The position numbers and the translations under genes were made by a program. A stretch of 64,000 nt of DNA, taken from the NCBI GenBank assembly GCA_963969365.1, contig OZ017751.1, forward strand, positions 682,001-746,000. The letters are read 5' to 3'. Below the pieces are notes generated by a model, which saw only the letters and a list, made by a program, of their open reading frames with translations, made no database searches and was not told where the DNA came from. The stretch comes from Asterochloris sp. CNOR1 (taxonomy: Eukaryota; Chlorophyta; Trebouxiophyceae; Trebouxiales; Trebouxiaceae). Below, piece after piece: positions 3,301 through 48,780 of the stretch; within the stretch, counting starts at the first letter, position 1, and each line of letters opens with the position of its first letter.

Positions 3301-6300
3301 GTCTTCCTCCTCATAGGACTGCAGGATCTGCTTGAGCCCATTGCGCTCCTTGGTCAGCAGGGCAATCTTGCGCTCCAGACGAGCATGCTGGGCAGCTGCA
3401 GTGGCCATGGTAGGGGAGGCTGCCCTGGCTGCGGCCTCAGCCTGCTGCTTCTGCTGCTCCAGCAGGCTTACCTTGCCTGCAACCCAGCAGCAAAGGCGTC
3501 AGGCAGCTGCTCGAGGGCTGTGCAGGTCCTGCGTAAGACTCTGAGGGCCATCAGTCGCTCTCTTTGCAACATGTCAGAGAGCTGCGCAATCAGCACGCTG
3601 AATATTGAGTTTGAAACAGTGCAACTGACAGACGCTCCATGAGCGCTCATACTGCCTGCCTTGTGCCATACAACTGGTGCATGCACACCCTGAAGCTCCC
3701 TGATCTCGGTGTTCCTGTTGCCCAACGCGCTGGTGGCACTTGCCGCCTCTCGCTGCAGCTGCGTCAGCTGGTGTAGCAGCTCCTCAGGAGTGCTCACGCC
3801 AGGGGCCTTCTGCAGCAGCACAGCAGGACCACTCAACAGGGGGGTTGCAGTGTTGCAAGCTAGCTTGGCAAGGCGGTGCATTTCCCAGGTGTCCTCGTGC
3901 TGTGTCTCTACTTACCAGGATGCACTAGGCTCTGCATGCGATACATTTAGTGGCAAGGTCACCTGCTGCACATACCACAAGCGCACCAGGGCACTCTGGG
4001 CGATACGACATGTGTGTGGTGCAGCACATGCAACATTGGGGTGCCCAAACATTAAGGACCCTGCTGCCTGGGCACATGCCTGCAGCAGCGCATGCCAGTC
4101 CCTGTGCTGCTGCTGCCTGAGCTGCAGCTCCTCCAGCTGCTGCTGCACCTCCTTCTGCGCCGCCTGAGCCTGCTGGGCCTGCTGCTGCGCAGCATGCAGC
4201 TGCTCCTGGAGCACCTCCACATTCCTGCAGCAGCAGCAGCATGTGTATATGAGCCAGCCCTCAGGCTGGAACTGCACGCACTGTCATGCTTGAGCCACTT
4301 TGCACAGTGACCAGACAAGCACGTGGAGCATGCTTGTATCTGCAAGCCATGCTGCTTGTGGGTTTGTGTGGCCGGGGGACATTCATTGACGCTGCAGCGG
4401 TGTTTGGCACCCACTTGACGTATGCCTTTAGCCTGCGTGCCTCTGACAGCTCGTCCTGCTGGCTGTCCACCTCAGCACGCAGCTGGCGCAGCAGGGCAGA
4501 GCTGTCCCCAGCCTCGCCACTGGCCCGTGCCAGGGCCAGGTCTGCAACTGCCTGGTTGGCATCCCGCCTGCAAAACGCAGGGTCTGCTTGGTGGCTGTGC
4601 ATCAACATGGGACCCCACCTTCAGGCTCCCAACAAAGTGCCTGTGCATCTTCAGTGCATCATGCACCAGCTTGGCTCAGTTGAGCTGTGCAGGGCTGCAA
4701 CAGAGCTATGCATCAGTAGAGTCTTGAGTGTGCCAACACATGCTGAGTGCACGCACCGGGCCTCAGCTGCTGCTAGCTCTGCCTGTCTGCGCTGGCTGGC
4801 AGCGGTCTCCCCCGCAGAGATTGCAGCTGCCAGGCGCTGGCTCTGCTCCTTCAGCTGAGCCTGCGCATCTGCAAGCTGGCTCTGGTCAGCAGCCAGCTGG
4901 CGCTGCGCAACCTCAGCTGCATCCTGCATTGGTGAGCACTGGTTAGCAGGCTGGCTACTGAGCATGGGCAATCTGGAGCACAGGTGCTGCATTGCCTCTC
5001 TGCCTCAGAGGCAGGCTTGGTTTGCATCACAAGCCTGAGAGGCGCATATTGGGTTGCATGCCATGGCTGAGCACCTGTGCTTCATTTCTGGTGGCCTCAA
5101 GCTCAGAATGCAACTCCTCCACCATCTGCTCCAGCTCCAGCTGCCTCTGCATGTTGTCTGCATCACTGCTGTCCAGGGCACCCTCTGCAGCCCTGGCGCG
5201 CTGCTCCCAATCAGCCTGCATGCAGTACAGGGGACCCTGTTGAGCATGGCAGCTCTGTCTACAGTCGCTATGCATGGTGCCTCTTGGGCAAGGCAGCCAG
5301 CTGGCTACGGCGAGCTTGCTTGGCGCAGCCCGTGGGCCGCTTGGCAGTTTGCATGGAGTTGTCTGCATGTGCTTACCACAGAGGCTCACACACTGCCTAG
5401 CTCAGGCTCGAGACCCACATGGGCACCTGCATGGCCACCTGCACGGATCTGTGCGGTGCTGTAGGTGCTTGCTGGCAGCCTGCAGGATTGCACAGGTTGC
5501 ATGAGCAGCAGCACCCACCTGCTCTTGCTGGAGGTGCTGTGCCCTCTGCTCAGCATCTCTGGCGCCCTGTGTGGCAGCATGCAATTCTGCCTTGAGCTGG
5601 GCCACACGGGCTTCATAGGTCTTCTTCTCGCCCTGCCACAGCTCAGTGGCAGTGTGGCTTCGCCGGCCTCTGTCCTCGCAAGCTTTTGTGGCCCTTGCTA
5701 GCTTGTCCTTCAGCTCCATGTTGTCCTGCCTGCTGAGCTCCAGCTTCTGCTTCAGCTCAACGATGGCCTGCCCGCTGAGTTCCACCTCGTCCCGCAAGTC
5801 TTTGATGTCGCCCTGCAAGTCGTTGCTGATGGATGCATATCTGTCCTGCAATGCCACCCTGCCTGCTGGGGTGTCGCTGGCCCTGACAGGTTTATGAATG
5901 TGGTTGTGCCTGCCAGCAGTGCTGATCACAGCTTGGCGCTGGGGCACAGCCAGTCTGGCCCGCTTGGTGCCTGCCTCCTGATCTGGCTGCCCTGTGGATG
6001 TGTCAGCACCTGGTGTTGCCCTCTGCATGTTGGGATAGCATGTGCTCAGCAGACTACAACATCAATATGCTGGCTCGGCCATGGCAGGCACAGCTCACCT
6101 GCATGTGGTCAGCTATCGATTTGCGTTTTGTCAAGTTTTGCTGTGCTGCCATTGCCAGGTCTCGCTGCAGATCGCGGGGCTTGGCTGCAGACTCGACATA
6201 GCTTGTCATTGTACACCTTCATCGCCATGCACCCTGATAGGTTTCTGCAGCTTAGTCACCATGACTATAGATCTGCATGCTGTTCACGTTGAACCCTTCC

Positions 6301-9300
6301 CTGAGCTGCTCCTGTGATGTGTCTGCAGAAAGGGGCAGGCAGATGGCATGCTCAACCTGCGCTTAGAGAGTGGAGATGCCACCGTCATGGCCAGACGGTG
6401 CGAGGCCTGCGTGAACTGCATGCGCCGCATGTGTTACATCTGTCTCTTTTGTATCTGAATCCAGTCTTGACGCCTACGTGCCACTCTGCATGCCAGGCCC
6501 ACCTGCTCCCCTCATTTGCGCATTTCCCAGTCGCCGCCCAGGGGAAGCCACCTGCCCTGCAGGTGGGATAGTGCGTTGTATCTGGCAGCCGGCACAGACC
6601 CATATGAGCTGGTGGACAAGGCTGTGGCTGCTGCTGCCAAGCTGTCGGGGACGTCCAAGGCCCGCCAGGACAAGGCCCTGCCCGAAGTGGTGGACGTCTT
6701 TGGCTGGTGCACATGGGACGCCTACTACAGCAAGGTCTCAGCCCGAGGTGAGGCGGCAGTGCCCCTCCTCATGGGTTGCCACCAGGTATCTGCTGCCGAG
6801 GTGAGGTGGCAGTGGCCCTCTCATGGCTTGCCTTCAGATACCTGCTCCCGAGGTGAGGTGGCAGTGGCCCTCTCATGGGTTGCCAGCAGGTATCTGCTGG
6901 CGTTTCGGTCCAGGCTTTTGCTGTCCTGGAAGCGCTTTGTGGAGTCAGGCCAAGGTGGGCGCACAGACACAGGCAGCAGCTGGGGGTTGTCCCGGGAGTC
7001 ACCTGGCTGGTGCACGTCGAAAGCGTGTTGCAGCAAAGTCTCAGCGTGGAGGGGGGCCTGATATGGAGGGATAAGCGCAGAGAACCCTCCCGCCGCTCAC
7101 GGTAGCAAGGTCTCAGCTTGACATGGGCGCGCTGGACACATCCTTGCATGCCATGGTCCCTTGGGTGTGCATGCTGCATCCTTTGGCTGGTGCACCTGAG
7201 GGCCCCCGTCACAGCAAAGTCTGTAAGAGTGGGTGGGTGCACTGTCCACATGCTGCAGCCATGGTGACTCTCACCTGACTTCAGATCTTTATGACAAGAT
7301 AGTCTGAGCTCAAAAGCTACTCCTGCCTCCTCCTGCTACTCAAATTGCAAATGCACTGCAGCAGGGTCTCAGCTCAGGGTGGGCCCCTAATGAACAATTC
7401 AGGGCATAGGGTAGCTGCAGTGACACCCCTACGACTCCAAGGCTGTCTTGAGCCTGGCTGGCATCCCTGCTTAGGGAACTCAAGCAGGAAGGCCCCTACC
7501 TGGAGCGCTGCACCTAAAGCAATCTGCTTGCAGTGCTGCACTTGGCCAGGCACGTGGCACCTGTTCACGGTCTGGCCATCAAGGAACTATGGTGGCGCTG
7601 CAGAGCTGCATGGAGGCCTGCGCATGCTGACTGGGGGAGGCGTCTCGATCCCCGACTGGTCATGGTCGCTGCCGGCAGTGCACCAGGAGGTGGTCAAGTG
7701 TCTGCAATTCCTGCAGAGCCGAGGCCCCTGGTGCCCATGCAGGGCTGGCTGGCAGTGCCGGCTGTGGCTGACCCCAGTGCTGCTCTCCATTGCCTGGTGC
7801 CTCCCTGCAGGGCTACGTGAGGGGCTGCAAATGCTGACAGGGGGGGTGTGTTGGGTGCCTATAGAGCTGCGGCAAACATCACTTGTCCCTGCACGCCTGC
7901 ACGCGTCCCTGCGCATGCAGATCAAGGGTGGCGTCCCCAGTCCAGAGGTTGACTGGTCACTGCCCACTGCTGCTGCTGACTGCTGAGACGCGAAGTGCCT
8001 GCAGGACTAAGACCCCTGCTGCCTATTCAGGGCTGACGTGCAGTGGTGGCTGCTGGCTGGCTGGGGTGCTGAATCCCCCGGGCCTGCTGCCCCTGCAGGC
8101 CTGCACGAGGGGCTGCGCACGCTGACTGAGGGAGGCGTCCCTCCCAGGTTTCTGATAATTGACGACGGCTGGCAGTGCACAGATGTGGACGCCCCCCTGC
8201 GCAAACCCATGACCAGCAAGCTGCTGATGTCGCCCGAGATGCGCGAGTCCATGGCCCAAACAGAGGATGAGTTCATTGAGGCCGAGTACCAGATGCTCAA
8301 CATGATTGCGCGGAGCTTGCCGCCCTCCAGCTCGGCAGGTGAGCCACAGGGCTGACAGCGCTGTGCCTAGGACACAGGTACATGCAGGGCGATACGTGCA
8401 GCCTTCAAGCTCCACAGGTCTGGTGCTGCTGGCAAGCACTTCTTAGGGTTCTGCATCCACTGCTGCTTGGCCTCAGTGCAATCCCCAACATTGCGCCCTG
8501 CAGTCACCCTGCAGTGCTGAAGCCACCTTCCAGAGGAAAGTGGCCTTGTGCTGCCTGTTAGATCGTCCATTGCATGGCAGGCACACATGGGTGCTCCTCT
8601 GCTTGAGCACCAGCATCAAAGCAAGCTTACAGCCTATGCCCACTGCTGCTGTGCAAGACAGCCAGAACCAGCTCCAGCTGCTGTTGTGTGGCCACACAGC
8701 TGCCCGCTCTCTTCGAACTGCGTGCACGCTGCCTGGTGCCCTCACCCGCTGCCAAGGGCAGCTGCTGACAGCACTGAGACTCATGTGCCTCTGCCCTGGT
8801 TGCTGTGCAGGGCAGCTGCTGGCAGCCCTGGCTGCGGGGGAGGACCACATGGACCATCATCTGCGCCACGAGTCCCCCACAACCATCAAGCAGAGGCAGT
8901 CGGCTCGTCGCCGCAGCCCTGGCAGGTCAGCTGTGGGTATCTCATGAACCCCACCCTCCGGTTGGGACTGCGGCCATTGGCACAGCCTGCTGCTGCATCA
9001 TGCAGCCATTGTGGTTGCTTCATGCCCGAGCAGGGCGCTGCACTGCGTGTACAGGTGTGCTACACATCTGCTGCTTGCTTGGCTGGTGAGTCTGCAGGGA
9101 CATCCTGCAGGTAGCTGACTGCTAGCAGCCGGCAGGGCAGGACCACCGCTTGCTTGGCTCTCACCCCTGAAGCCTCCAACTGTTGGACACCCACGCCTGC
9201 CTGGCTTCGCCCCCAATGCCCCCAGGCCCTGCCACAGGGACCCATACTCAACACTTCGTCTGCAACTCAGGGTTCGCCGCAAGGACTCTGACAATGAGGG

Positions 9301-12300
9301 GAAGGGTGGCCAGGGCGGCACCAGCAACCGAGGGGGCGATGCCAGTACCAGTGGCAGCCAGGGGCAGCGAAATGGCTCACAGCAGTCGGAGCTGCCCGAT
9401 GGTGCACAGGAGACGGTTGAGCTGACGGTGGACACCAGCACCCAGTCCCTGGAGGAGCAGTCGGGGGACACAGCGGACCAGGCAGAGATGGGGGTGGACG
9501 GCAAGGCAGGCAAGGGCGAGGCAGACGCAGCTAATGGTGGGCATGGTGTTGCCAAGGGCTGCTGTCATGTTGTTTGAGCTGCCTTGGGACACAGCAGCGG
9601 CCAGTGTCTGAAAAACCACCCAGGGATACAGTTGCCCTGCGAGAGTCAAGAAAGACTGTTTGCTGGTCGCCCTTCTCTGCCTGGCAGCAGCAGTAGTACT
9701 GACTGCAGGCACACTGTTTGTCCTCAAAATGTGCCGAGCAATAGCCGCTGTCTGCACTGCAGGGTCGCGTTTCTCTGCCTGGCAGCAGCAGCAGGAGCGG
9801 CGCCGGCAGGAGGGGCGGGAGACCGCACCCACATCTCTGGTCCGCCGTGCCGACCAGCCTGTGACGCCCCTACAGCAGCTGCAGCTGCTAGACCGCCTGG
9901 AAAGGGTGCTGCAGGTGGGCAAAGCTGCCACTTTGGTGTACGCTTTGCGAACCTCAAGTGCTGGGCAGCAGGTTTGGTGGTTTGTTCAAATGAGCTTCTT
10001 TTGCTTTCTGGCAGATCGCAGTGACTGCCCTTTTCCTGGCTGCATGATCTTCCACTTACAGATCTCAGTAAAGCGCCCAGAAAGCCTTGCTCTTGGCTTG
10101 ATTGCTGTGCACAATGACAGACTTCTGCAACTGTGCCTCCTGCAGGCGTGTGTTGCAGCAGGCAATCTGGCACCAGCTGCCTGATGTGATTTGCAGGGCT
10201 TCACCACCTGCAGGCACGCTCTCGGCGCCTCCAAAAGTACCCTGCTGCCCGGCTCAAGAGGCCAGCTCCTGGACCCATCTCCCTCTTTTCTGCCACCTGC
10301 AGGCGCGCTCCAAGCGTCCCCAGAAGTACCCTCCTGCTCGACTCAGGGGTCCTGGACCCAAGTCCTGCTCTGTTGCCACCTGCAGGCGCGCTCCAAGCGC
10401 CCCCAGAAGTACCCCACGGCCCAGCAGCAGCTAGACAGCCTGAAGGAGCGGCTGGTCAAAGCGCGGGAGCAGCTGGAGCTGGCTCGCCAGCAGGTGGACC
10501 GGGCTGGGCAGGAGCTGTCAGACCGCGTGTCTGAGTCTGTGGCTCTGCCACCTGCCTGGCGGGAGAAGCCCATTGCTTGGTAAGTCTTACAGGCTTGCTT
10601 GTGGCTGTGAGCTTGTGCTTGTTTTGGCAAGCTCCCCTGTGATGGTGAGTCAGGTGCTGTGTGGGTGGCCCCGTCATGTGATGAGCTTGCCATGCTGCTC
10701 TGGGCTGTCCACCTTGGAGGAGCCTGCTGTTGCTAACTGACCTGTGTGTATTCACCTTGCATGCAAAAGGTCTTCACAGCACAAGTGTCAGAGTGTGGGT
10801 GTGCCTGCTTCACAAGGGTCCACTACTGCCTAGGGTGAAAAACTACTGTTGCACAAGATGCCTGCAGGAAGAGAGGGGACGCCATCATGCATCCCATCGG
10901 CACATGGGCATACTGAGCAAAGCAACACTGCCCCGGCCATACCTGTCCCCTGCCCATGCCGCAGCTGCAGGCAGGGCTGGGTGCATGGCTCTGCCAGTTG
11001 CTGCTTTCCATTCCCTGCAGCTGCGGTGCAGTGCGTTGAAGCATGCAGGCTGCTGCCAGGCCTGTTCCCTGTGCCCGTCCAGACGGGTAAATGCTCGGCT
11101 GTGCAGGCTGCACCTGCCCCTGACTGACCAGCTTGTCTCACCACACAATGCAATTGCAATAGCTTGTGCCTGGCTGGCTGCTGTCAGCCCTGGCTCCTGT
11201 CCATCAGCATCAAACCTGCATGCCCCTACAAAGTACAGCAGCTGGACCTGCTCATGCCTGACTGTGCAGGCTGCTGTCCGCCCTGACCCAGCGCCTGATT
11301 GGAGGGGCCCTGGGCCTGCTCGAGGCCCTCTTCGTCAAGCTGTACCAATATGTGATTGACCCGGCTCCCCCTGGCTCGTGGCCCATTCGCTTCTTTGCCT
11401 GGGCAGCCAGTGGGCCCATCAAGTGAGACTGTCACCGTGTGCACAAGTCGGCATGCCCTGGGACTCCATGTCTGTCTGCCCAATTCTGCTTGTTAGTGAG
11501 TGGCATCTCATCGACTGAGCACCTGCTCAGCAGGTGCTACGAGAGTCACAGCACCCGTCCTTCTCTCAGTGGAGTTTGCAGTACTGAAGCAACACTCCCC
11601 ATTCATTCTTAGCTTTGCGCCGCTCCAAGACAAATATTCATGCTGCACTGCCACACCTGGTGCTGCATTTGCACCAGACCCTGATTCTGCAACCCAACCT
11701 GCTGTGTGCGGCCTGAAGCGGCAAGTTGGCTCTGCCATCTTCATATTGCACCAGCATGAAGTCTGTCCGGTGCCTGTGGACTGCAGGGGCAGGATGCCTC
11801 GGCAAGCTGCCCCTTTTGTATGTGGGGGGCAGGCATCTGAGAGTGTCTGCAGACTGCAGGGCTGAGACTCAGTGTAGTTAGTTGAACAATAATGCCTGCA
11901 ATAACAACTGTACACTTGACAGACAGCAGCAACGTTTCTCTCAGCTGCATATCCTGACGCAGGGGAATGATGCTGGAGTTCTTCTCGGTCTCTGGGGACT
12001 TCACGCGACGCCTGACAGACATTCGTGCCAATTCCAAGTTCTCATCCCCTATGGCCGGCCCTGAGGATTACTTCTCTGTGAGTAGAGTCTCTATTGCTCA
12101 TTTTTTGCTTCTTGTGGCTAGCATGATGTTCCTGTGTGCAGCCCTGGCACACACAGCATGTTGTCAGTGAGCAGCCTGGCTTCTGTTTGGGCCTGCTATG
12201 TTTGGTGTTGGTTGCGTGACTGGGGTGGCTCAGGAAACAGGGCCGCCTGTCCTGATCCTGAGAGCAGCAGTTTTTCTGTTTCAGTGAGGGCGTTGCAGCT

Positions 12301-15300
12301 GTGGCCTTCATGGTCTTGTAGGAGGGCAGACTGCCTGCTGAAGGCATCAGATCACGCTCTGATCAACTGCAGTGAGTGACTCAGCAAGCAGCTCTGGCCA
12401 AATCTGCTGCGCTTGAGTTGTGGCTGCAGTCTTGCAGGCTTGCAGGGGCCAGGGCATAACAAGCTGAGAAGGCATTGATCCAGTGTCCCATTGGTTCCAC
12501 GCACCAGGCAGCAAGGTGTTGACGGAGTCCTTGGAAGCATCCACCACTTTCTTTCTGCAGGGCTTGGAGCCTCAGCTGGGGGAGGTTGTGAAGTCATTGA
12601 AGCAGGCTTGGGGTGTGGAGTACATCTATGCCTGGCACGGGCTGCCAGCCTACTGGGCGGGCGTGGCTGTGGGTGAGTCATACCACTGCTGCCAGGCTGC
12701 GGCCTCTGCTTCGCTTCTCGCACTTGCAAGCCTAGGTCTCCATCGTGCAACACTGTCAGTGCCACACATCCCTGCTCAATCAGCTTAGCATTCTGGGCCT
12801 TGAGGGCCCCCTGTGTGCCTCAACATGCTGGACCTGCGCTGTGTGCTGCTGCTGGTACACTGCAGCAAAGGAGGGCAGCTGACTGGCAACAGATTCAGCT
12901 GGAGCCTGGCACTTGGCCAGACTCACGCCAGCGAGACAGCTGGTGGGTGTGCACGTGCTGTGGAGCCAACGGTGGCCAGGCATGACTGACATGACTTCAC
13001 AGCTGTCACATCGTGCACATGGCGTGCAGGCGCTGAGGAGCCGGCGGTGGCCAAGTATGAGGCGCGCATCATGTACGCCACCCCCACGCCCGGCCTGGCG
13101 GAGGTGGAGCCCAGCACGCTGTACAACCCCTCGGTGGTCAGCGGGGTGGGGGTGGTGCAGGACCCGGCAGAGCTGTATGGGGACATGCACAAGTACCTGG
13201 CTGCTGAGGGTGAGGGGGCACCATGCACCCGTCTCTGGCACCACTTGTGCAATCTGGGCAATCTGTGCTGCATCGAACTTGGCGCTTGGTGCCTGCGAGC
13301 GCACTGTGGCAGTTGCATGTGTGCCTGCACCAATGCCTGGCAGCCAGTTGAGTCCTGCAGGCGCCATCAGAGGTGGCGGCTCTGCAGGGACAGGGTCGAC
13401 TCTGCACCCACAACTTATCACATCAGGAGCTGCCGACGTCGTCTTTACCTGCAGCACCTGCTGTCTGCACGGCAGTCTCAGGATGAAAGTGGCTCCTGTC
13501 TGGCCTCGTTCACCCGCCTGCTCAATCTTTTGCCCACTTGATCTTGCAGGGTTCCCGGGATGTGTCAGTTGATGGTCATGCTGGGGTGGGCCTGGCATTC
13601 ACAGCCATGCGTGGCGGCTCTTGCAAGGCGCTCACTACGCGCCTGCTCCAGTTATGCCACTGCAGGCGTCACAGGCATTAAGATGCACTGTCGGGTGAAA
13701 GGGGCGGGCCTGGCTTGCAGAGCTTTGATACTCACCTTCACGCTGCCCCACTCACCCTGTTGCTCCCTCCTGCAGGGTCAACAAGGCGACAGAGCAGCTT
13801 GCCCGACAGTGTGGGCCGCACCCACCCGCTCAGCCCCTCCCACATTTGCTCATCCTCTGATTTGCTCCTTCAGGTGTCACAGGCGTGAAGGTGGACTGCC
13901 AGGCAGGGGTAGGCCTCATTGGAAGTGTCATGGGCGGCGGCTCTCACATTGCGGGGCAGTACCATGCAGCCCTGGAGGCCTCTGTGGCCACCCACTTTGG
14001 AGGCAACCACTGCATCAACTGCATGTGCCACTCGACAGAGAACCTTTACAGGTGAGGAGCCATATGCCACTGGCAGATGCAACCGCCCCCCTGCAGGGCA
14101 GTTGGTTCAGCAGAGCATCTCTTGCTTGTGGGGTTTGACAAGGGAGACATAGACAGCAACCCATTCAGCAGAACTCAACTGCTGATTGAGGCATTGCAAG
14201 ACTGTACTAGTCGGAAACTGGTGAGCTGGGGAGCCTGCTGAAAGGGTCACTAGTGGTGTACAGCACTCAATTCGCAGAAAGGGGTCCTAGGGAAGGCTTG
14301 GGCACTTGAGCAGGTGCGCTGTGCTGCCTGCCACTGCAGCAGCCACGGCATCAAGCTGTGGATCAAAGAGGCCCTTGCCTGCTGCCTGCAGGCTTGCGCA
14401 CACAGCCACTGTGAGGCTGCCTGCCTTGCTGCAAACTGCATTGCCGTGACTACAAGCGCATGGCTGTTGCACGACTTGTGAATACAATGCCTGCAGCTGC
14501 CAACAGAGCTGCAGAAGAGGGACCGCTTTCACCCAACCTTATTGCTTGCAGGTTTGCCAACACGGCCATCGCACGAGCCTCTGACGACTTCTACCCCCGA
14601 GACCCAGCCTCCAGCCAGCCCCACATTGCTGCCTGTGCCTTCAATTCCCTGTTCATGGGCGCTCTGGTGCAGACAGACTGGGACATGTTCCACAGGTAGG
14701 GAAGCAGGCACGCTGGAGAGCCTTACTGTTGCTGACAGACTCTATGGAGTCACCTGTTATGCTGCATTGCCCCGCCCCTGTATGTGCCTCAATGGTCTTC
14801 GTGGCAGTTGCCCAGATCATCAATGCTTGCCACTTCTTCACCCTCTGCCCACTTTTGCAGGTTGTCATGCATGCCTGACTGCAAGCTGCATGTGCCGCTG
14901 ACCCCTCCTTGGCCCTGCAGCAAGCAATGGACAGCGGCAATGCATGTAACTGCCTGCTGACACACCCACTGCCCCTGATCCCACTCTGGCCTGCAGCAAG
15001 CACTGGGCGGCAGAGATGCATGCAGCAGCTCGTGCCATAAGCGGCGGCAGCGTGTATGTGTCGGACTTCCCAGGCATCCACGACTATGACATCCTGCGGC
15101 AGTTGGTGCTGCCAGATGGGACCATTCTGCGGGGCCTGCTGCCCGGCCGGCCCACCCGCAGCTGCCTGTTCAGCGATGTGCTGCGCGACAACCAGAGCCT
15201 GCTCACGGTGAAGGCTCTGTGCTGGTGCTGTTTTGCCGCTGTGCTGGTGTGATTGTGGAGTTGGAATGTGATTCGGAGGCCCTGTGCAGTGCTGGTGGGA

Positions 15301-17854
15301 CCATGTGGAGGTAGACTGCCAATGGCTGATGTTCTGACGGCATGTTGCTCATTTTGCTGCTTTGCTGGGCATTCTGTTGAGGGTCGGGTGTCCCTTTGGT
15401 GCCTTTGATGAAGACGTCCTTGCTGTTGCTGTCTTGCCGCTGCGCTGGTGGGAGCTCAGTGTTGCTACCTTCAGTGCTCTGCAGCACCAACAGGTTTAAG
15501 GTGCTTACTGCTGCCTCGAAGACTAACTGAGCCTGGCACATGGTTAGGCTCTCGGCAGCGCACTGGCAGGGCAGCTTTCTGAACTGTTAAGAGCAGATCA
15601 GCGCTTCGTGTGCCCGTCTGCACAAATGTGGTGCCAACTCGTGACGTCTGCGGCTGAGCAGCATCGGGCCAGCCCCAGAACAGGTCGCACCACCCTTCAC
15701 TGGGATGTTCATGTTGTTCCTTCAGCTCTCTGCACAGTCATCAGCAGATCAGAGCTTCATGTGCCTACCTGCAGGTGTCCACTGCCAACCCCGGCCCGGC
15801 TTCTGACTGGCACACGGCGTTCGCCCAATTTCACAGCCGTCACTCTGCACCTGCCTGCATGCAGCTCTGTGCACCGCCAACCCCTGTCCGCCAGGCCAAG
15901 CACCACATCTCACCTGGCGAGAGCAGGTTGCACACATCTCACATTGTGCTGACTTTGCCTGCCTGCAGGTGTCAAACGCCAAAGCCTGTTCCGGCTTTTG
16001 GCCGACCAGCTCGCTGCACTCGTCTGAGTGCATATCGTGCACATCTCACTCAATGCTGACTGCACCTGCCTGCAGGTGTGGAACGCAAACCCCTGGACGG
16101 GCGTGGTGGCTGCCTTCAACCTGCAGGGCGCCTCCTGGTCCCGCAGGCGGCGGCAGTTCATCATCCATGACTCATCCCCGCCTGTCCTCACCACCCGCGT
16201 CTGCCCAGCAGACGTGGACGTCTTCAGGGACCTGGCTCTGCAGGTCAGCCCTGCCACGTGACAGTCACGCCTGACCCTCTGTTTGCTGGCCAGCCCCGGC
16301 TTGGGACAGCCAAAACCCATCTTCCAGGTCGCTTGGCACAGCCCAAGGCTGAGCCTTGCGGCCCTGCCCAACCTGCCTGCACATCTCTGCGCTGCCTCAT
16401 CCAGGCTTTTATCCTGGCTGGTAGCTCAACCCAGAGTCTCCCAAGGTGTGGCAATGAGCTTGAGATGGGGCAAGACTGAGCCTGAGCCTTGGCAGGCAGC
16501 CAAGTATGCCTGCAGAGTCGGACCGCCCTGTAGTCAGCAGATGCTGAAGGCAGCCAGTGGATGCTGCAGGGTGCGGACCCCAGCAGAGCGCAGGCTGCAA
16601 CCAGAGGAGACCGGGCACTGCCCCAGCAGAAGTTTGTGGGCTGGTGTAACCGCGAACAAATGCTGCGGCGCCTGGACATTGATGAGAGCATGCCAGTCAC
16701 GCTGGCAGGTGGGTGGCAGATGCAGAACCAAAGGCTTGTGCCTCTGTTTGGCCTTTTCTGGAGCAACATGACTGCGCTGCATCATGAGCAGACAGCCAGG
16801 TTTCGAGGCATTGGAGTCATGGCAGTGGCCAAGGTTCTGCAAATCTGCGTAGCCTGCACCAAAATGCTCGTCCGGTGGCACTTCTGTCTGCTGCATGTCC
16901 TTCACTGGTCTCCAGGATTGCTGAGTGTGCTGGTCTGCCTGCCTGCAGGTGGGCAGGCCGCGATGGTGACCTTTGCACCCCTCATGGAGCAGGACAACAT
17001 CCAGTTTGCTGCTCTCGGGCTCAGGAACATGCTGAATGGCGGCGGCGCCATCCTGGCGTGTAGTGGTCTGCGCAGTGCTGCGGTGAGTCCCGCCTCTGGT
17101 CCTTAGCCAGCCAGAGCTGCCTGCCCACTCATGGCAGTTTTCTGTGTGCAGGGGCGCTGCCCCACAGGGTTTGCTTTGGGGTTGCCCACAGGGTCTGCTT
17201 TGGGATTTACGGCTGGTCATCATTGATAGCAGACTGCAGCGCCTCCAACTGAAGTCATTGGCGGCTTAAGGTACTTTTCACAGATCTGCACAAGGGCTGA
17301 AGCATGCAGCCACCTGCCTGGACCAGGGCTTGGCCATACAGACGCAAACAAGGCCAACTGCAACGGCTGACAGGGTGCCATGTCACAGGCCTGCAGCTGC
17401 TGAGTGGTGGGCTGAAGCATGCCTCTGAGGCTCACAGGGTCCTCAGATGAATACTCTGCACTTGCTGAGTCGTGGGCCAAAAACCTGCCATGTGACCGCG
17501 CTCCCAGAGTTCCCCACTTGCCTGCAGAAGCTGCGTGATGAGCAGGCCATCGCGCCGCTACCCCAGGGCTTTGGCTGGTGGGGGCGGGAGCAGTACCACC
17601 AGCCAGCCCAGCAGGCCTCGAGCAGCAACAGCAGCGCTGCAAACGGCGCTGGCGGCACCCGGCAGGGGCAGGTCGGCTGCAGCCTAGCAGTCAAGGGGGC
17701 AGGAGCTCTGGTCATGTACAGCAGCAGGGCGCCTGCTGCTGTCTATGTGGACAGCCAGGCTGCGCCGTTCCAGTATGACCCTGTGCAGGGAAAGCTGGAG
17801 GTCCGATTGGAGGCGCGGCCGCAGCTGCACCACTCCGTGCTTGTGGAGTTATGA
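329..17854 (+). CDS. RFS: raffinose synthase / SIP-type GH36 glycosyl hydrolase family protein, 20 exons
   Basis: Family members transfer galactose from galactinol to sucrose or cleave alpha-galactosides, normally in cytosol or plastid. Exons: 329-628, 954-1144, 6329-6397, 6563-6747, 8099-8338, 8811-8925, 9271-9536, 9763-9914, 10386-10579, 11270-11422, 11963-12077, 12561-12672, 13030-13209, 13874-14051, 14552-14695, 14997-15207, 16076-16243, 16570-16708, 16949-17082, 17528-17854; every junction is in phase (about 1190 aa). Family marks in order: [12 protein letters not shown] (exon 2), LESGD (exon 3), [13 protein letters not shown] (exon 4), LIIDDGWQ (about residues 267-274), [12 protein letters not shown] (exon 12), KVDCQ with the likely nucleophile Asp (about 765), [10 protein letters not shown] with the acid/base region (about 828), DWDMF (exon 15). 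Plant members have about 750-850 residues; the excess is an insertion at about residues 300-630. Which reaction is catalysed cannot be told from sequence. Intron 2 holds MAD1 on the other strand. Confidence 0.93.
1241..1245 (-). terminator. candidate TGTAA polyadenylation signal for MAD1
   Basis: TTACA on the plus strand reads TGTAA on the minus strand. TGTAA is the usual green-algal polyadenylation signal. It lies about 190 bp past the MAD1 stop and about 100 bp inside the RFS donor at 1145. A five-base motif is weak evidence alone. Confidence 0.35.
1434..6028 (-). CDS. MAD1: spindle assembly checkpoint protein MAD1, nested in RFS intron 2
   Basis: MAD1 recruits MAD2 to unattached kinetochores. 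Exons in transcription order: 6028-5519, 5215-5075, 4923-4757, 4567-4415, 4224-4080, 3809-3689, 3476-3279, 3056-2818, 2551-2294, 2033-1729, 1503-1434; all phases agree, giving about 768 aa against roughly 720 in human and Arabidopsis. Most of the protein is coiled coil rich in Q, E, A and L. Family-specific marks lie at the C-terminus: [14 protein letters not shown] (exon 9, compare TKVLHMSLNPTSVA in human), then the RWD-like tail with [20 protein letters not shown] (exon 10) and [16 protein letters not shown] before the stop (exon 11). The intron after exon 5 has a GC donor (GCATGT). A TGTAA polyadenylation-type signal lies about 190 bp past the stop, still inside the RFS intron. The start is an ATG 300 bp from RFS exon 3. 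Confidence 0.9.
6745..6903 (+). repeat. three tandem ~52-bp copies of the RFS exon 4 end with its donor site
   Basis: The true junction (GAG then GTGAGG at 6748) is followed by two further copies in which GAG-GTGAGG recurs at 6801 and 6853. Each is followed by a nearly identical stretch beginning TGGCAGTGGCCCTCTCATG. The copies differ at few positions, so the array is fairly young. Each copy is a potential alternative donor. Confidence 0.85.
6990..7385 (+). repeat. decayed copies of the [13 protein letters not shown] part of RFS exon 4
   Basis: Segments near 7005-7055, 7186-7230 and 7352-7382 resemble the exon 4 stretch at 6700-6750 (GGCTGGTGCAC, AGCAAGGTCTCAGC). They are broken by changes that close the frame. 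Spacing is about 160-190 bp. They lie in the intron and are not needed in the gene model. Confidence 0.65.
7585..8098 (+). repeat. decayed acceptor-side copies of RFS exon 5
   Basis: Near 7588-7650, 7803-7850 and 7885-7940 the sequence resembles the start of exon 5 at 8099 (CCTGCAG acceptor, then codons for [14 protein letters not shown]). The forms read roughly [25 protein letters not shown] and [14 protein letters not shown]. The exon that splices in phase and continues into LIIDDGWQ is the last one. Confidence 0.75.
10200..10385 (+). repeat. two decayed acceptor-side copies of RFS exon 9
   Basis: ACCTGCAG followed by a sequence like exon 9 occurs at 10214 and 10303; the real exon starts at 10386. 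Steps are 89 and 83 bp. The second copy shares GCGCGCTCCAAGCG and CCCCAGAAGTACCC with the real exon, and the first is more eroded. Confidence 0.85.
13546..13725 (+). repeat. two decayed copies of RFS exon 14 (nucleophile exon)
   Basis: Near 13552-13625 and 13668-13720 are stretches matching the start of exon 14 at 13874 (GTCACAGGCGTGAAGGTGGA), each after a CAG acceptor-like site. One copy keeps GGGGTGGGCCTGGCATTC against the exon's GGGGTAGGCCTCATTGG. Confidence 0.7.
14860..14996 (+). repeat. decayed acceptor-side copy of RFS exon 16
   Basis: CCTGCAGCAAGCAATGGACAG near 14916 parallels the true junction CCTGCAGCAAGCACTGGGCGG at 14990-15010, followed in both by GGCA(GA)ATGCATG. A more eroded copy may lie near 14860. 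Confidence 0.7.
15600..16075 (+). repeat. four decayed acceptor-side copies of RFS exon 17
   Basis: Copies near 15610-15645, 15768-15815, 15855-15900 and 15962-16010 resemble the start of exon 17 (CCTGCCTGCAG then GTGTGGAACGCAAACCCC at 16076). The closest reads GTGTCAAACGCCAAAGCC and the next GTGTCCACTGCCAACCCC. The spacing is near 90-110 bp. Confidence 0.75.
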
Positions 17855-29474: not shown

Positions 29475-32400
29475 ATGAAGGGCTCAGAACCTCGCAGCTA
29501 CACATTCAAGAACACCTGGACGTGAGTGAACTGTCCTGATGACCCTGCCCAGTGAAGGTCTGGTGCCTGTCAAGCACCAGCAGGCAGGTGTACTGGTGAA
29601 TGGTCAATGACCCTCTCTGCTACGCTCAGGTGCCTAGCTGAGCTCCTGAGACCTGTGCAGGGTGCGGGAGAGGAATTTGCCAGAAAAGGGCAGCGCGCCA
29701 CTGTACTGCATTGCCTTCAATCTGTCTCATCCTCGGCACCAGCACATCTTTGCCACAGCAGGAGGCACCAGGGTGAGTGCCTGTTGGAGCGTGCTGGGCA
29801 ATGCCAAGCTCTTGCTGTAACCAGCCCTTGGGCGTGCTGCCTGTGAGTGCCTGTGTGCTGGGGCCTGCCAAGAAGTCGTGGCTGTGCTGCCGCTTCAGGT
29901 GATGATGGCCCAGGGCTATGGGAGGCGCTGCTTACAGCTTTGACAGCTGCTGCCATGTGCCATACAGGCTAGCGTGTATGAGTGCAAGGAAGACGGGAGA
30001 TTTGAGTTGATGCAGGTCTACCATGACCCAAATGTGAGTAGCGTGCATGCAGTGGCTGGGCTCCTGCGCCGGCTGGGCTCCTGCTCACGGCACCCCATGT
30101 TGTGAGGACACTGCGGAACAGCCTTTTGTATGCAGTATGAGAGGCTGCGTGCAGTTGACAGGCATGTTTGACGCAGGACTTTCAAGGGCACGGTGAAGCA
30201 GCTATTCTCTACTGAACACTAGCACAGGTGCACTTGTGTGTTCTTGCTGCTGGCATACATGCCTGCCTGCATGATGGCTGCAGCCCCAGGCCTATGTGCT
30301 GACACCTTGTGGCTTCGTGCTGTTGATGAAGACTTGTTTGTGCCTCAGGCCACAGCTGCATGCCTGCACACACGGCGGGCAGTGGTGAGCAGGCACCAGG
30401 CCGCAAGCACACAAGCACTTTGGGCTTGCTCAGGGTCCTGCAGCAGCTGTGTTAACCAGTGTACTGCAGCAGCAGAGGACAGCTCAGTGGACCCAGATGA
30501 GGTGTCAGGGGCTCTCCTGCTTGTTTTTACCCAGCTTGACACCCAGCTGTGCTTTACAGGAGGGAGGAATGCTGCAGATGCAAAAGCTTCAGAAGGCTCC
30601 CCTGCTTGTCCATCAAGCAGCACCAGGTCGCCGTCTACCAGTGCCTTGCAGGAGGGTGAGGAGCTTTTCACCTGCCAGTGGACGCAGGATGAGGTGTCAG
30701 GGGCCCCCTTGCTGCTGCTGGCGGGCAAGCTGGGCTGCCTCTCTGTCATCAATTGCACGACCAAGCAGCTTGAGTGGGTAGGCATTTGGACTGGCAGCCT
30801 CGGCTGCACAGTGCTCTTATTGGTGTGAGCCCAGCATTCTTGATGCAAAACACCACTGTGCTTGCTGTTTAAGGCCTGGCCTGACTGCTCGGCCGCAGTT
30901 TGCTGCATTCCACAGGCTGTTTGCTGGCTGACTGCCAGGAGAATCACCCGAAGGGCCTTTTTAATGTGATCGTCATGACGATCCTTAGCGTTTCCTGATG
31001 TTGCTGCAGCAAGGCCTGGGGCATGGTGATGCCATCAACGACATCTCTGTGGACCCCGGGCGGCCCTGCATTGTCGTGACAGCAAGCAGGGTGGGTGCCT
31101 GCATTGCCGTGACAGCAAACAAGAAGCAGGGCGCCTGCTTGCCTTGCCCTGGCACTCCAGCAGGTCCAGTGCCAGCATGACCCTGACAGCAAGCGGGGCA
31201 GCTGCCTCCAAGACCCCGGCAGCCAGCATTTTCACTGCCAGCATGACCATGACAGCAAGCAGGACAGGTTCCTCAATCACCCCTTCCTGTGACACTGATG
31301 ACACCCTTGTCATGACCGCCTGTCCAGGACATCTGGTGACACTTGTTCAGGCAGCCTGTCACTGCGTGCTGTGTGTCTGCAGCAGCCCCCAGCACCCTCC
31401 CTGACTGCCTGCGAGGCGCAGCAGACCACTGTCAGTAGCGGCGGCCCAAGCTGCCACAGGCTCATGCGAATCTGGCAGCTGGTCCTGGGAGTCAGCCCCG
31501 CCAGCTGCAGCGGTGTGGGGGCAGCGAGCCTGGGGTTGCTCCCTCAGCAGAACTGCTGCGTCAGCAGTCCCTGCTGCGCCAACAAGCTTTCTGCCTGCAG
31601 GACCGCACGCTGCGCCTCTGGAACATCCGCACCCGCGTCTGCATCAGCATCCTGGGCGGAGAGGGAGGCCACCGCAACGAAGTGCTCAGCATTGTGAGTC
31701 TCTGACTCAGCTGGGCCACACCTGACCTCCTGCATTGCTGCGCTCTGCGCAAGGTACGCCTCAGGTTCACGAGTGCCGTGCTTTATCTGGGCTGCGGCTT
31801 GACTTACAGCAGTGCACTCCTTTGTGAACAGACCCTGACCGGTTCCAAACAGACCCTGAAATGTGTGCCTGCAGCCACGACTTGCAGGTCATTGACATTT
31901 GCCTTATCCCCGCAGGACTTCCATCCCTTTGACAGCAACAAGGTCCTCTCAGCCAGCCTGGACCACTCTGTCAAGATTTGGGACCTCCAGTGTGAGCGTC
32001 TCAGGACACAGCTCCCGCTTTCACTGAAGCTTCCCACAGGCCTGCCCTGCCCATGACTCACCACGTTGGCTGTGAGGACAGGCCTGCCTTGCATTGAGTG
32101 CACCCACCAAGCAGGTGCTCCGTCATCAGACAGGGTCACAATTCCTGCTGCAGCCGTCAGGAAGTACATAGAGGAGTCCCACAATTACAACGATGCTTCA
32201 GCTCAGGAAGCCTTCCCCACAGTGCGCCTTCAGTTTCCTCACTTCACCTCTCGCAAGGTACGCCTCGCCTGTTTGCTGCACTGCTGGCTCGCCTCGCATG
32301 CAGATTGTTGGGGTTTTGAGGCGCTCTGCTCACCAAATCATCATGCCTGGTCACGCCCAGACTGAGGGCCTGTTGCACTCAGGGGTGACCCTGGGTGGGC

Positions 32401-33634: not shown

Positions 33635-33753
33635 CTCTTCTTGCAACATGCCTACCAGCAGCTTACTCAGAACGCATGCAGACATAACTGGCATCTTGAT
33701 CTGAAGGTCAAGACCACTGTTCACTGAAACTCAAGTGACTGCAGCTATTCCTG

Positions 33754-38080: not shown

Positions 38081-38441
38081 GACAGGCTGCTGCCAGCTGC
38101 CAGAGGCAGAGGTATTCCAGGCCTCAAGGGATGCTGCACACTATCGACTGCTCAACAGACGTGCTCACAGGGCCCTAGTACAGACCCAGAGGTCAGAAAC
38201 AGCACTGCACTAAAGAGCAAAGGAACAGTTGGTTCTTTCTTGACAGCCCTGACGATGCCGGCCTAAACAGAACCACACAAACAGTGTGCCGAGTGCTGGC
38301 ATCCTGCTGCTAACATCGTGAGTGCAGCACTCTGCGCCCTGGGAGCCTGCGGGGGACTGTGTTGCATGGGCTATCGGCCAACAGCTGCTGCGCTGCTGAG
38401 CGCCCGCGCAGGGGCGCCTTTGAGCAGCACAGCTGCTCCGC

Positions 38442-40437
<1,996 letters not shown>

Positions 40438-41958: not shown

Positions 41959-42143
41959 CGTGGACACCGCTCGACACTGTTACCTGCAATGGGCCTCTGC
42001 TTCAATACTGATAGCCCCCGGCTGGGGACAGATCGAGAGCCGATCGCGTGCTGCATCTGAGGTAATAAGTGCAGGCTGCCTTGTCATCAGAGTTGACCAG
42101 TGCTAGTCAACAAAATTCAGCACTTCAGCAAGGAGGCATGTAT

Positions 42144-45100: not shown

Positions 45101-45233
45101 ATAGCATCAGATCACGGCCTATCACAGCCTCTCAAAGCTGCATACCTTGCTTCCCATTGGAGCTGGCCTCCCGGCCCTGGCGCTTCGTGGGCGGCAAATC
45201 ATCGTCGACAAGCTGGCGGCACCTCTTAGGCAT
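42144..45233 (-). CDS. CDT1: DNA replication licensing factor CDT1
   Basis: CDT1 loads MCM helicase at origins with ORC and CDC6. Exons: 45233-45146, 45072-44890, 44605-44558, 44490-44387, 44153-43557, 43318-42980, about 42735-42578, 42393-42144; about 590 aa. The N-terminus (MPKRCRQLVDDDLPPTKRQG) is basic and probably disordered. The geminin-binding CDT1 domain is split over exons 3-5: LPNKYTVLLDMF, LRGQRCLFPAVKAAVEQQ, CHRRFT, then HLAQLKFVYPEVLQLQRVRV. The C-terminal winged helix is at LPRAFDALRNVF and SYEEAKELLSLLSASASEWM, ending with INRTADIKTIRRSL. I saw no clear PIP-box degron near the N-terminus. The exact start of exon 7 is uncertain because several in-phase acceptors are possible. 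Confidence 0.85.
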
Positions 45234-45519
45234 CTGACTGATTCAAGCCGACAGGCAAGGACGAAAGCGTTCGCAGAGGAAAAACAACGAGGTTGACCAG
45301 GATTCTAGTTTCACGTCCTTGCATAGAGTAATACAAGGTAATGCCTCAGTACATGCAATCAGATCTGATGACAGCTGTGAGGCACAAGCAAAGGAATTTG
45401 TCTACAACTACTGAGAGCATCCTGGCTGATGCGTACAGGCCACAAGTGTCTCAACAGCAAGGCAGATTGTTCCCACAAAAGTACATGGCACCGAGGGGTC
45501 CTTTCCGGGGATGCAACAA
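45234..45519. other. spacer between ABTB1 stop and CDT1 start
   Basis: A 286-bp intergenic stretch, slightly more AT-rich than the genes around it, presumably holding the CDT1 promoter. No exon was recognised. Confidence 0.4.
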
Positions 45520-48500
45520 CTAGGCCTCGATGCCCAGTTGTTGCAGCACCTGGTTCAAAGCCATAAGTTTCTGTCGCCGCAGAGACAAAGCAGCAAAGCG
45601 GGGGTCCTCCATGCCAATGACCTCTTCGTCACAGCTGTCTGCATCAGCAGCATCAGGCTGTTGTGCCCCTGGTGCTGCTGGTGTCACAGTCGTTTCATCA
45701 TCAGGCCCAAAGAGGTGTTGCCACATCTCCTCAGAGGCGTCAGAACCCCACTCTGACAAGGCTTTGTCCTCCAAGGCTGAGGGCTTGTGCTGGGACTCCT
45801 TAAGAAGAGCTAGCTGCGCAGGGTCCAATACTGCTACGTCATCATCATCTGCATACCATCATGGCACAGATTTCAGAGAGGTCCACATGTTATGAACTGG
45901 GCACAGCAACGCAGTGCACACAAGCTTGAAAAAACTGTAATCAAGCTGGACAGCTACATAGGCAATCTTTGGCACCTGACAGTTCCCCAGTTCCATGCTG
46001 CTGCGCTATGTGGTAACGCACATCGTCTATGACAGGAATGGAGTCGAACTCCTGCCTGTTGCTCACTGACTGGGCACTTTCGGCCACAAGCTGTGAAAAT
46101 AAAGGCTTCCGTACAAGCTCAAGCAGGTGCTGAGCAACACAGGTGGTACAAGACTCCATCAGCCTGCATCGCCAGAGACACACTTGAAAGAGCCGAGTGA
46201 GGTAACCTGCTAGACAACAGAGAGTATAGGGGAACTCAAGCTGGACAATGCTGCACCCACCTGTCGCTGTCCATCTCCATAGCTTCAGCCAGCAGGGGCA
46301 GCGCTGTTTCAGTTGTGACATGTGGGTGCAGCAGCATGCTGCAGCGCTGCTTCAGGCCATCCACAAGGGCACGGTCTGCAAAACGCATGAGCTGCAGCCA
46401 AGGGGTTAGGAATTTGGTGTGATGGCTATGCTTAACACAGGCATGCATGCGTGCACAGAAGGGGCCAGAGACGACACCGAGAGTGAGCAACCCCTTATTG
46501 TGTGCGGGGCAGGCCACGTTCCTGCTTCAAACCCAGCTCAAAACAGGTGCTGCCAGGGAGTCAGCAAATGGAGCAGCACAACAGTTAACAGGCTGCCAGT
46601 GGTATCACACCCACCCACCTGAAGCAGGAGGTCGCCAGACTCTTCTACTGCAGCTGGAATGTTGTCGGTGTACATCCACAGAAGGGCCGCCTCCAGCACC
46701 TCCGGGGAGACGTCTGCTACCTGGGCCATGGTCACAGGGGTGGAGCCAGTGGCCCTGCCCTCCTGGAAGGGGCTGTGCAGCATGGCGCGGTAGTACTCAG
46801 ACCGCAGGCTCAGGCAGGCCCTGCAGGTTGGGTCCATGCGTTCTGCACTCTCTGATGGGCAACGCCAGTGCAAAGCTGGCGGCAATCTTGGCAAGACCCA
46901 TTTATCGGCCAAGTAAACCCTCTTGCAGCAGCTGAATGGTAGCTCCATGAAGGTTGATGCCGCAGACACAAAGCTGCTGCCCACCTATGGCACATGAAGC
47001 AGCGCTGCCCCACCTATGGCACATGAAGCAGCGCTGCCCCACTGTCAGGCACATGTCCCAGGCAAAGGGGCTGCTGAGCTGCTTGTCGCCCGGTTGGCAC
47101 CCCTCTCTGACAACAGCCTCCAGAGCCTGCTGCAGCTGCTGCTTGGCCTCCGCAGGCGGCAGCTGAATGGTCACTGACTGCCCACTGAAAGGCAAGCTGC
47201 GCAGCTGATCTGCAGGGCATCGCAGACGGAGCGTCAAAACTCAGCAAGCAGCTGCAGGGCCTGCCCAGAAGGTCAGGGACAGCGCTCAGGCCGCAACAGC
47301 TCTTGCAGGTCCACGAAGGCTCATCATGTGCAACGACCAGATAGCACCTGCCTGGCTATGCCAAAACTGACCTTGCTGCAGCACCTGCTCAATTTCAGCG
47401 TGCAGCTCTTGGAGGTGCAAGACCTGACAGGCCTGAAGGCACCACTGCAGAGCATCCTCTGGCAGGTGCAGCTGCCGGGTGTAAAACCACCTCAGCAGGC
47501 CACGAGTGGCAGCAGGGCCGCCAGCAAGCAGCAGCTGCTGCACCTCATCGGCATTCCCATCCCATACGGAGCGACCTGCAACCCAGAGGGTCACGCTGCT
47601 GCAGCATCAACTGATACGGTGCTGAAGCAGATGTGTCTGCAAATAGATCTGGGACAAGTGTGCTGGCAAGCAGCATGGCAAGCAGCAAGCGCCGGGCGCC
47701 AACAGATAGAGCCCGCCGCAGAGAAGAAAGAGACATTCGCTCACTGACATTGCTTACTGGATGGCGGCGTAGAGGCTGCCAGCATGAAGCGATGACAGTT
47801 TGTGCCAGCAAAGGCTACATCTGGGAAAGCCTCTTGGGAGTCGAAACAGTCCCTCTCCAAAAATTCCAGGAACAAGTCATGCCCAGCCGCCACTGCAAAG
47901 GCAGACTGTCGTGTCAGATATGAAACAGGGCTTGTGCGGGCTGAGTGTCTTGGAGACCCACCCTGGCGCTTGAATCCATGCTCCAGCAGCACCCTTCGCG
48001 TCTCATCGTTCAGCGCTGCATAGAGACAGCGCTCTCCATCATAGGACTGCACAGCAGCAGCCCAGGGGAGGTCATTACAGCTCCAGAGCCTCAAAGACCT
48101 GTCACTGCCCACGCTGGGCTTGCCTTCTTTTCACACTTGGCTCCTGCTGCCAGGAGGAATTTGCACAGCTCCACATTCCCTGAAGTAAGCACAGTGGGGA
48201 GCTTCAAGTGCCGCATGCTGGAGGCTAAATCATGCCGCATAATGATGCTGTTGCGATCATGTCTGCATGACATAGGCTGCAGGGATGCAACTCACCTGTC
48301 AAGGAAGCATAGAAAAGGGGTGTACACTGCCAGTCATCATGCTGCTGCAAGTTTGCTTGGCCTGTTTCCACCTGAAGTCAAATGCCTATCTCAGCACATT
48401 GAGTGGGACATGCTCAAGCATGCATCGGTAAGCCTTTATATGCACAACGAACAGCAGACCTTGAAGCGAACTGCAGACAAGTCGCCTGTCCTCACTGCCA

Positions 48501-48750: not shown

Positions 48751-48780
48751 GATCAGGGCGGGTTCACCAATAGCAATGCG

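What the first reader, a model, noticed from the sequence alone, without database searches (positions are those of the whole stretch)
6000..47040. Introns filled with decayed tandem copies of the adjoining exon edge and splice site
In RFS (introns 4, 8, 13, 15, 16), EED (introns 3, 5), the coiled-coil gene and ABTB1, intron sequence next to an exon repeats that exon's edge with its acceptor or donor. Steps are about 30-190 bp and decay varies from none to near-unreadable. The copies are partial and carry working-looking AG or GT sites. I know of no standard element that does this. It points to recurrent junction-spanning tandem duplication, with the cell choosing one copy and the rest becoming intron, so that introns lengthen and may slide. 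This may be a genome-wide mode of intron growth.
Basis: partly seen in the sequence, partly recalled or inferred. Interest (0 to 1): 0.88.

Follow-up and report, generated by a model that had tools for sequence, protein, structure and literature searches.

The report
Introns carrying duplicated exon-edge relics
In the sampled stretches of this green alga's genome about one predicted intron in nine carries a worn copy of the edge of the exon beside it, apparently left by ordinary short DNA duplications that crossed a splice site, which makes these genes a natural collection for studying how splicing chooses between duplicated sites.

Summary
In 264 kb (the window plus 20 control loci of 10 kb), 191 short-range direct repeats score >=18; one shuffle gives 2. 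Against matched introns of other loci, exon heads match their own intron at p<=1/201 in 33 of 474 cases and exon tails in 23 of 474, about 2.4 expected each. Controls: head against next intron 6 of 414, tail against previous intron 6 of 414, head against a distant intron of the gene 2 of 453, reverse complements 0 and 5 of 474. Together 55 of 474 predicted introns, in 17 of 21 sources, carry a copy, so the window is not special. Homology supports the junctions in raffinose synthase, RuvB-like 2 and RPN11. The relics decay as noncoding DNA; 7 of 7 tested units have one place in the genome.

Random intron and intergenic DNA is duplicated too (17 and 14 of 600), in units of about 90 bp. My reading: widespread short tandem duplication; events crossing a splice junction survive when the exon-proximal copy is used, and the other copy decays inside a longer intron. 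No junction-targeted mechanism is needed. Intron sliding was not tested.

The parts
6563..6747 (+). RFS exon before the relic-rich intron 6748-8098
   Evidence: tblastn with 5 homologues; start from the gene finder; donor GAG|GTGAG
6743..6899 (+). 52-bp array, 3 copies, repeating the exon end with donor GAGGTGAGG
   Evidence: TRF score 242
7004..7050 (+). relic of the RFS exon end [14 protein letters not shown] inside the intron
   Evidence: 34/47 identical; weak protein-level match, E 0.44-0.98; tail p=0.001
7593..7646 (+). relic acceptor plus exon head of exon 8099
   Evidence: 43/54
7803..7844 (+). second relic acceptor plus exon head of exon 8099
   Evidence: 33/42
7884..7937 (+). third relic acceptor plus exon head of exon 8099
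   Evidence: 42/54
8088..8141 (+). functional acceptor (8098|8099) and exon head, matched by the three relics
   Evidence: homology; TGCAG|GCC
8748..8776 (+). relic of exon head at acceptor 8810
   Evidence: HSP score 19, 83%; head p=0.001
10204..10414 (+). three copies (spacing 89 and 83 bp) of acceptor plus head of predicted exon 10386; last copy predicted functional; that exon is not credibly covered by homologues
   Evidence: D2; TRF score 257; 57/65; single place in genome
12946..12985 (+). relic of exon head at acceptor 13029
   Evidence: 32/40; p=0.001
13502..13727 (+). two relics of exon head [18 protein letters not shown] at acceptor 13873
   Evidence: tblastn E 0.01-0.37 inside the adjoining intron; 31/43 for the second; p=0.001
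14914..14953 (+). relic acceptor plus exon head for acceptor 14996
   Evidence: 31/40; head p=0.022 only
15749..15995 (+). two relic acceptor plus exon-head copies for acceptor 16075; one was called a false exon 15775-15894
   Evidence: 35/51 and 56/77; homologues run on without this segment; head p=0.032 with the 50-nt edge alone
31047..31283 (+). array of about 33-bp units copying the exon end at donor 31090 (EED, identity recalled)
   Evidence: 6 copies; 25/34
46976..47042 (-). 29-bp tandem copy of the ABTB1 exon end (identity recalled); unit starts with GT and ends with AG, so the copy itself supplies a donor
   Evidence: TRF 97%; 34 nt at 100%, offset 29; sequence
27066..27218 (-). spaced 44-nt direct repeat (89%) in the coiled-coil gene at a predicted donor
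   Evidence: junction only predicted
21446..21623 (-). exon-tail copy at a predicted donor of the coiled-coil gene, 146 bp apart

Best explanation
Short tandem duplications (mostly about 35-120 bp) arise widely in this genome. Those wholly inside an exon mostly change the protein and should be lost. Those in introns or intergenic DNA are harmless. Those that straddle a splice junction give two copies of [intron edge + exon edge]; when splicing uses the exon-proximal copy (the last acceptor or the first donor) the mRNA is unchanged, so the event survives and the other copy, with its splice site, becomes intron and decays. The intron grows by one unit. Repeated rounds give several relics in one intron. 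SHOWN in the sample: the repeats, their adjacency to the own exon, their presence in 17 of 21 sources, noncoding decay, single-copy nature of 7 of 7 units tested. INFERRED: use of the exon-proximal copy, neutrality, loss of in-exon events, order of events. The molecular cause (fill-in of paired nicks or staggered breaks) is recalled, not tested.
For: Repeats 191 against 2 in one shuffle. Exon head 33/474 and tail 23/474 match their own intron, about 2.4 expected; controls 6/414, 6/414, 2/453, 0/474, 5/474. Background duplication in random intron 17/600 and intergenic 14/600. Exon interior against the intron 1/313 and 2/305. 64 of 182 aligned pairs abut within 10 bp (some pairs are one event met at several offsets). 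Non-exonic abutting units (n=27) have median 92 bp, and uniform breakpoints, scaled to offset 0, predict 36, 21.4, 11.0, 4.7, 2.5 head matches at offsets 0-100 against 36, 14, 3, 4, 2 observed. Some copies carry intron flank: 18/48 at p<=.05 against 19/393 in control. Mismatch rates by codon position .188/.143/.211; 17 of 22 indels are of length 1 modulo 3. Acceptor-like TGCAG is rarer on the sense strand inside introns (785 against 939; p 2e-4). Junctions homology-supported in RFS, RUVBL2, RPN11.
Against: Exons are not clearly depleted of repeats: exon-exon pairs 13 against 18.6 by relocation, and repeat coverage is 5.1% in exons, 5.9% in introns, 3.5% in intergenic DNA; coding repeats and exon edges are part of that, but loss of in-exon events is not shown. 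In 30 of 48 testable copies the intron flank is not recognisable at p<=.05, so another route is not excluded for these. Copies reaching 50 nt into the exon are fewer than predicted (3 against 11.0 and 2 against 10.3; at offset 25, 14 against 21.4 and 12 against 20.4). Pairs crossing predicted acceptors exceed random relocation (29 against 12.6; acceptor-acceptor 10 against 0.9) while donors do not (11 against 12.0; donor-donor 2 against 0.8); gene-finder errors may add to this, and the excess is symmetric when the target ignores annotation (36/418 and 34/412). Third codon positions differ slightly more (p 0.025) and distances lean to multiples of three (24 of 56). No RNA evidence.
Confidence: 0.75

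Rival explanations
1. A junction-directed process (for example breaks or template switching tied to splicing or R-loops) copies exon edges into the adjoining intron.
For: Acceptor-crossing pairs exceed random relocation; exon edges show 7.0% and 4.9% against 2.8% for random intron; recognised exon parts are 20-68 nt in 56 events and matches 50 nt into the exon are fewer than predicted.
Against: The same kind of duplication occurs in intron and intergenic DNA; slower decay of the exon copy predicts about a twofold excess (inference); unit size explains most of the edge limit; donor-crossing pairs show no excess over relocation.
Confidence: 0.15
2. The copies are mobile introns (introner-like elements) or transposon pieces.
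For: Repeated sequence inside introns.
Against: 7 of 7 tested units have a single place in the genome (the tool warns that very common words are skipped). Relics were found by their match to the own exon; distant introns of the same gene do not match it (2/453).
Confidence: 0.02
3. The relics are functional alternative exons or alternative splice sites kept by selection.
For: Relics keep AG in 16 of 33 heads and GT in 9 of 23 tails; the gene finder calls some as exons; slight third-position excess, p 0.025, and 24 of 56 distances divisible by three.
Against: First and second codon positions have changed almost as much as third (.188.143.211), and 19 of 22 indels are not multiples of three.
Confidence: 0.05
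4. Chance matches from CAG-rich, low-complexity introns and the shared acceptor motif TGCAG.
For: The acceptor motif is very strong (T95 G97 C98 A100 G100); non-adjacent controls are a little above expectation (6/414 against about 2).
Against: Exon-side-only matches exceed a CAG-anchored null 21 to 0.35; reverse-complement, non-adjacent and exon-interior controls are far below the adjacent rate.
Confidence: 0.01

Closest known systems
[quoted passage not shown] potato RdRp case, PMC4974935, passages read)
   Same: Tandem duplication that includes splice signals; [quoted passage not shown]
   Different: There a new intron appears. Here existing introns seem to lengthen and the exon stays as it was.
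Tandem duplication and intron sliding in Drosophila (Lehmann et al. 2010, PMC2891723, passages read)
   Same: Duplication of exonic sequence followed by intronization of one copy.
   Different: A small set of novel intron positions found by phylogeny; here many copies at junctions of one genome, without phylogeny.
Short tandem duplications from repair of staggered breaks or paired nicks in plants (recalled; papers not read, look-ups 71 and 72 timed out)
   Same: Size and head-to-tail layout, anywhere in the genome.
   Different: The splice-junction outcome is not part of that work as I recall it.
Introner elements (recalled)
   Same: Repeats within introns.
   Different: Introners are multi-copy families; 7 of 7 units tested here are single-copy.

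Membership tests
Generic short tandem duplication | Head-to-tail copies, abutting when young | tested here: met
   64 of 182 aligned pairs with gap <=10 bp (the list holds some events more than once); e.g. L008 6918-7035/7037-7154 at 88%
Generic short tandem duplication | Occurs regardless of splice junctions | tested here: met
   Random intron 17/600, intergenic 14/600, 0.5% expected
Generic short tandem duplication | Whole unit recognisable on both sides of the junction | tested here: inconclusive
   Intron flank significant at .05 in 18 of 48; 8 of 56 untestable
Tandem-duplication intron gain (Rogers) | New intron at a position formerly exonic | not testable with these tools
   No related genome was held
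Tandem-duplication intron gain (Rogers) | Duplicated unit supplies the splice site | tested here: met
   ABTB1 unit starts GT and ends AG; several RFS units carry the acceptor
Introner elements | Many similar copies in the genome | tested here: not met
   7 of 7 units single-place
Intron sliding | Intron position shifted between orthologues | not tested
   No orthologous gene structure was available

The most novel reading that the evidence does not exclude
In this alga junction-crossing tandem duplication is a leading route by which established introns lengthen, and its survivors expose a splicing rule: when a splice site is duplicated the exon-proximal copy wins, and copies carrying more than about 60-70 nt of exon are removed because they compete as exons.
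Probability: 0.3. Interest if true: 0.68.

Novelty: new variant of a known kind. Interest (0 to 1): 0.52.

Why it matters
It gives a measured case (55 of 474 predicted introns, about 5 expected by chance) in which exon-edge duplicates mark introns, links a common mutation type to intron length, and offers many natural duplications of splice sites of differing age in which one can ask which copy the spliceosome uses and when it switches. It also warns that ab initio annotation calls relics as exons: four of the 23 exons of the predicted RFS model lie where homologues run on without them.

Tried and rejected
1. An HMM gene finder without length limits shattered genes and a lenient chain version drifted and timed out; the version with fixed length priors was used. 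2. I first read the copies as ending at the exon boundary (intron flank significant in 18 of 56 at .05 with strict gaps). Printed introns showed flank similarity broken by indels (by eye), and a lenient gapped test gave 18 of 48 against 19 of 393 in control, so I do not claim exon-limited copying. The profile is biased inside the first 50 exon nt because these selected the events. 3. A cDNA origin of relics (relic next to the neighbouring exon's edge) gave 7 of 56 at p<=.01; in most of these the relic lies against or near the exon itself, so the match is trivial; set aside. 4. An acceptor-only effect was set aside: tails are enriched too (33 against 23, p 0.23; 36/418 and 34/412). 5. Introners: disfavoured. 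6. The homology-supported set (heads 7/24, tails 5/24 at p<=.005; interior 1/24 and 0/24) supports the junctions but is not a rate, since RFS came from the finding and RUVBL2 and RPN11 were chosen because relics had been seen; two typed coordinates there (RUVBL2 donor 867, acceptor 2330) are a few bases off, as the printed sites show. 7. Literature: three answered searches; the combination with the phrase 'splice site duplication' found no paper. Later searches timed out, so I make no claim that this is absent from print.
Full report
SOURCE. The window is C6:682001-746000 of a 56.4-Mb genome in 21 contigs. Raffinose synthase homologues point to a trebouxiophyte green alga: the best hit (60% identity) is unnamed, and the best named ones are Trebouxia sp., Myrmecia bisecta and Coccomyxa elongata at 53-55%. 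The tool holds no relative of this genome. I took 20 control loci of 10 kb at fixed positions (500001 on C1-C18; 2000001 on C1 and C4), so 264 kb in all with the window, under 0.5% of the genome.

OBSERVATION IN THE WINDOW. Direct repeats at 20-400 bp: 61 against 1, 2 and 0 in three shuffles. Over all 264 kb at 20-800 bp: 191 against 2 in one shuffle (score >=18), present in 19 of 21 sources (none in L002 and L014). RFS exons were located with five homologues by tblastn; the same search gave weak matches to relics inside introns at 7005-7046 (E 0.44-0.98), 13502-13630 (0.01-0.37) and 13647-13727 (0.19-0.25 alone).

GENE MODELS. No annotation was at hand, so I wrote a self-trained exon-chain finder: 66 genes and 474 introns (median 246 nt), exon median 124, donor CAG|GTGAG, acceptor cTGCAG|G. 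Its RFS boundaries lie near the tblastn ends at the introns used, but it calls relics as exons: 6838-6954, 7604-7697, 7921-7955 and 15775-15894 lie where homologues run on without them. It also set one RUVBL2 donor too early, losing 8 residues.

ADJACENCY TEST. 50-nt exon edges against their own intron, null = 200 length-matched stretches of introns from other loci: heads 33/474, tails 23/474 at p<=1/201 (about 2.4 expected each). Controls: head against next intron 6/414, tail against previous intron 6/414 (about 2 expected), head against a distant intron of the gene 2/453, reverse complements 0/474 and 5/474. Without the window: heads 24/339, tails 19/339, and the same controls 5/293, 5/293, 1/324. 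Union: 55 of 474 introns, 13 of 135 in the window, 17 of 21 sources.

IS IT JUNCTION-SPECIFIC? Random 50-mers against adjacent DNA: intron 17/600, intergenic 14/600, exon 24/600; exon interior (50-100 nt from the edge) against the neighbouring intron 1/313 and 2/305. Against 400 bp of any adjacent DNA, heads at offsets 0/25/50/75/100/125 give 36/418, 14/367, 3/310, 4/241, 2/181, 0/145 and tails 34/412, 12/365, 2/303, 6/230, 5/172, 1/133. Non-exonic abutting units (27, some possibly one event twice) have median 92 bp (quartiles 66.5-115); uniform breakpoints, scaled to offset 0, predict for offsets 0-100 36, 21.4, 11.0, 4.7, 2.5 and 34, 20.4, 10.3, 4.3, 2.3. So general duplication explains most of it. 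A deficit remains at offset 50 (P 0.005 and 0.002) and, weaker, at 25 (0.061 and 0.032). An exon copy under constraint decays at about half the rate of two intron copies, so about a twofold excess at edges over random intron is expected (inference). Random relocation of 190 repeat pairs gave intron-acceptor pairs 29 against 12.6, acceptor-acceptor 10 against 0.9 (these include relics miscalled as exons), intron-donor 11 against 12.0, donor-donor 2 against 0.8, intron-intron 53 against 62.2, exon-intron 45 against 40.1, exon-exon 13 against 18.6, intergenic 16 against 17.0. Repeat coverage is 5.9% of intron, 5.1% of exon and 3.5% of intergenic bases. So exons are only weakly depleted, which the explanation does not predict unless coding repeats and exon edges make up that coverage; I did not separate these.

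NATURE OF THE COPIES. Across 56 edge copies the recognised exon part is 20-68 nt (median 40 for heads, 37 for tails), and the period median is 117 and 106. Mismatch rates by codon position are .188.143.211 (third-position share p 0.025); of 22 indels 3 are multiples of three; distances modulo 3 are 24/17/15: mainly noncoding decay. Relics keep AG in 16 of 33 heads and GT in 9 of 23 tails. Intron flank is also copied in 18 of 48 testable cases at p<=.05 (control 19/393) and 13 of 48 at .01 (control 7/393); in the rest decay and another route cannot be told apart. Introns with a copy are longer, 375 against 230 nt (55 against 368 introns, p 7e-8); cause and opportunity are confounded. Acceptor-like TGCAG is rarer on the sense than the antisense strand inside introns (785 against 939; p 2e-4), as expected if decoy sites are selected against, though strand composition was not controlled. 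Seven relic units searched in the whole genome each have one place.

CONSERVED GENES. RuvB-like 2 (best PDB chain E 5e-199) has p=0.001 copies at two exon heads and three exon tails, and p=0.007 at a fourth tail; RPN11 (E 3e-122) at one head and one tail. RPN11 aligns without a gap across its two relic-bearing junctions. RUVBL2 aligns across its relic-bearing junctions without insertion, once one predicted exon (3628-3711) had been left out of the query; at the head at 1147 the query lacks 8 residues because of the mis-set donor. This is what use of the exon-proximal copy predicts. In RUVBL2 the relic at L015 1057-1099 (minus-strand coordinates) is preceded by a copied intron piece 1035-1050.

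ABTB1. The 29-bp unit GTGGGG...CATAG is perfectly duplicated; by the sequence the first copy reads as exon end, and the start of the second supplies its donor. This single case resembles the original AGGT model of Rogers.

LITERATURE. Read in passages: PMC4974935 (potato; tandem duplication taking in 3' intron and 5' exon made an intron, and an 83-bp tandem duplication lies in another intron), PMC2891723 (Drosophila), PMC3488318 (review, sliding). Work on short tandem duplications from staggered-break repair is recalled, not read. Later searches timed out, so priority is not settled.

VERDICT. Confirmed observation; most likely generic short tandem duplication filtered by splicing and selection; a new variant of a known kind. 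The residual puzzles are the scarcity of copies reaching more than about 60-70 nt into the exon, the copies without recognisable intron flank, and the weak depletion of repeats in exons.

Noticed in passing
474 predicted introns; base frequencies: The acceptor has a nearly invariant TGCAG|G core (T95 G97 C98 A100 G100) with only a weak pyrimidine tract.
   Followed up: partly
L012:6200-6987: A tandem duplication of about 390-400 bp containing a whole predicted exon with intron on both sides (82% identity); both predicted exon copies (153 and 147 nt) have lengths divisible by three.
   Followed up: no
L015 minus strand, about 840-867: The RUVBL2 model lacks 8 residues because the finder chose a donor too early; the open frame continues as VGQ....
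   Followed up: partly
window 45520-53891 minus strand: The finder seems to have fused a gene resembling a plastid nucleotide transporter with ABTB1; both identities are recalled from the predicted protein.
   Followed up: no
L008 intron 7327-7701 and L012 intron 5832-5930: Exon-tail copies sit exactly at the 3' end of the intron, a layout like direct repeats flanking a gained intron; the shared CAG ending may help the match.
   Followed up: no
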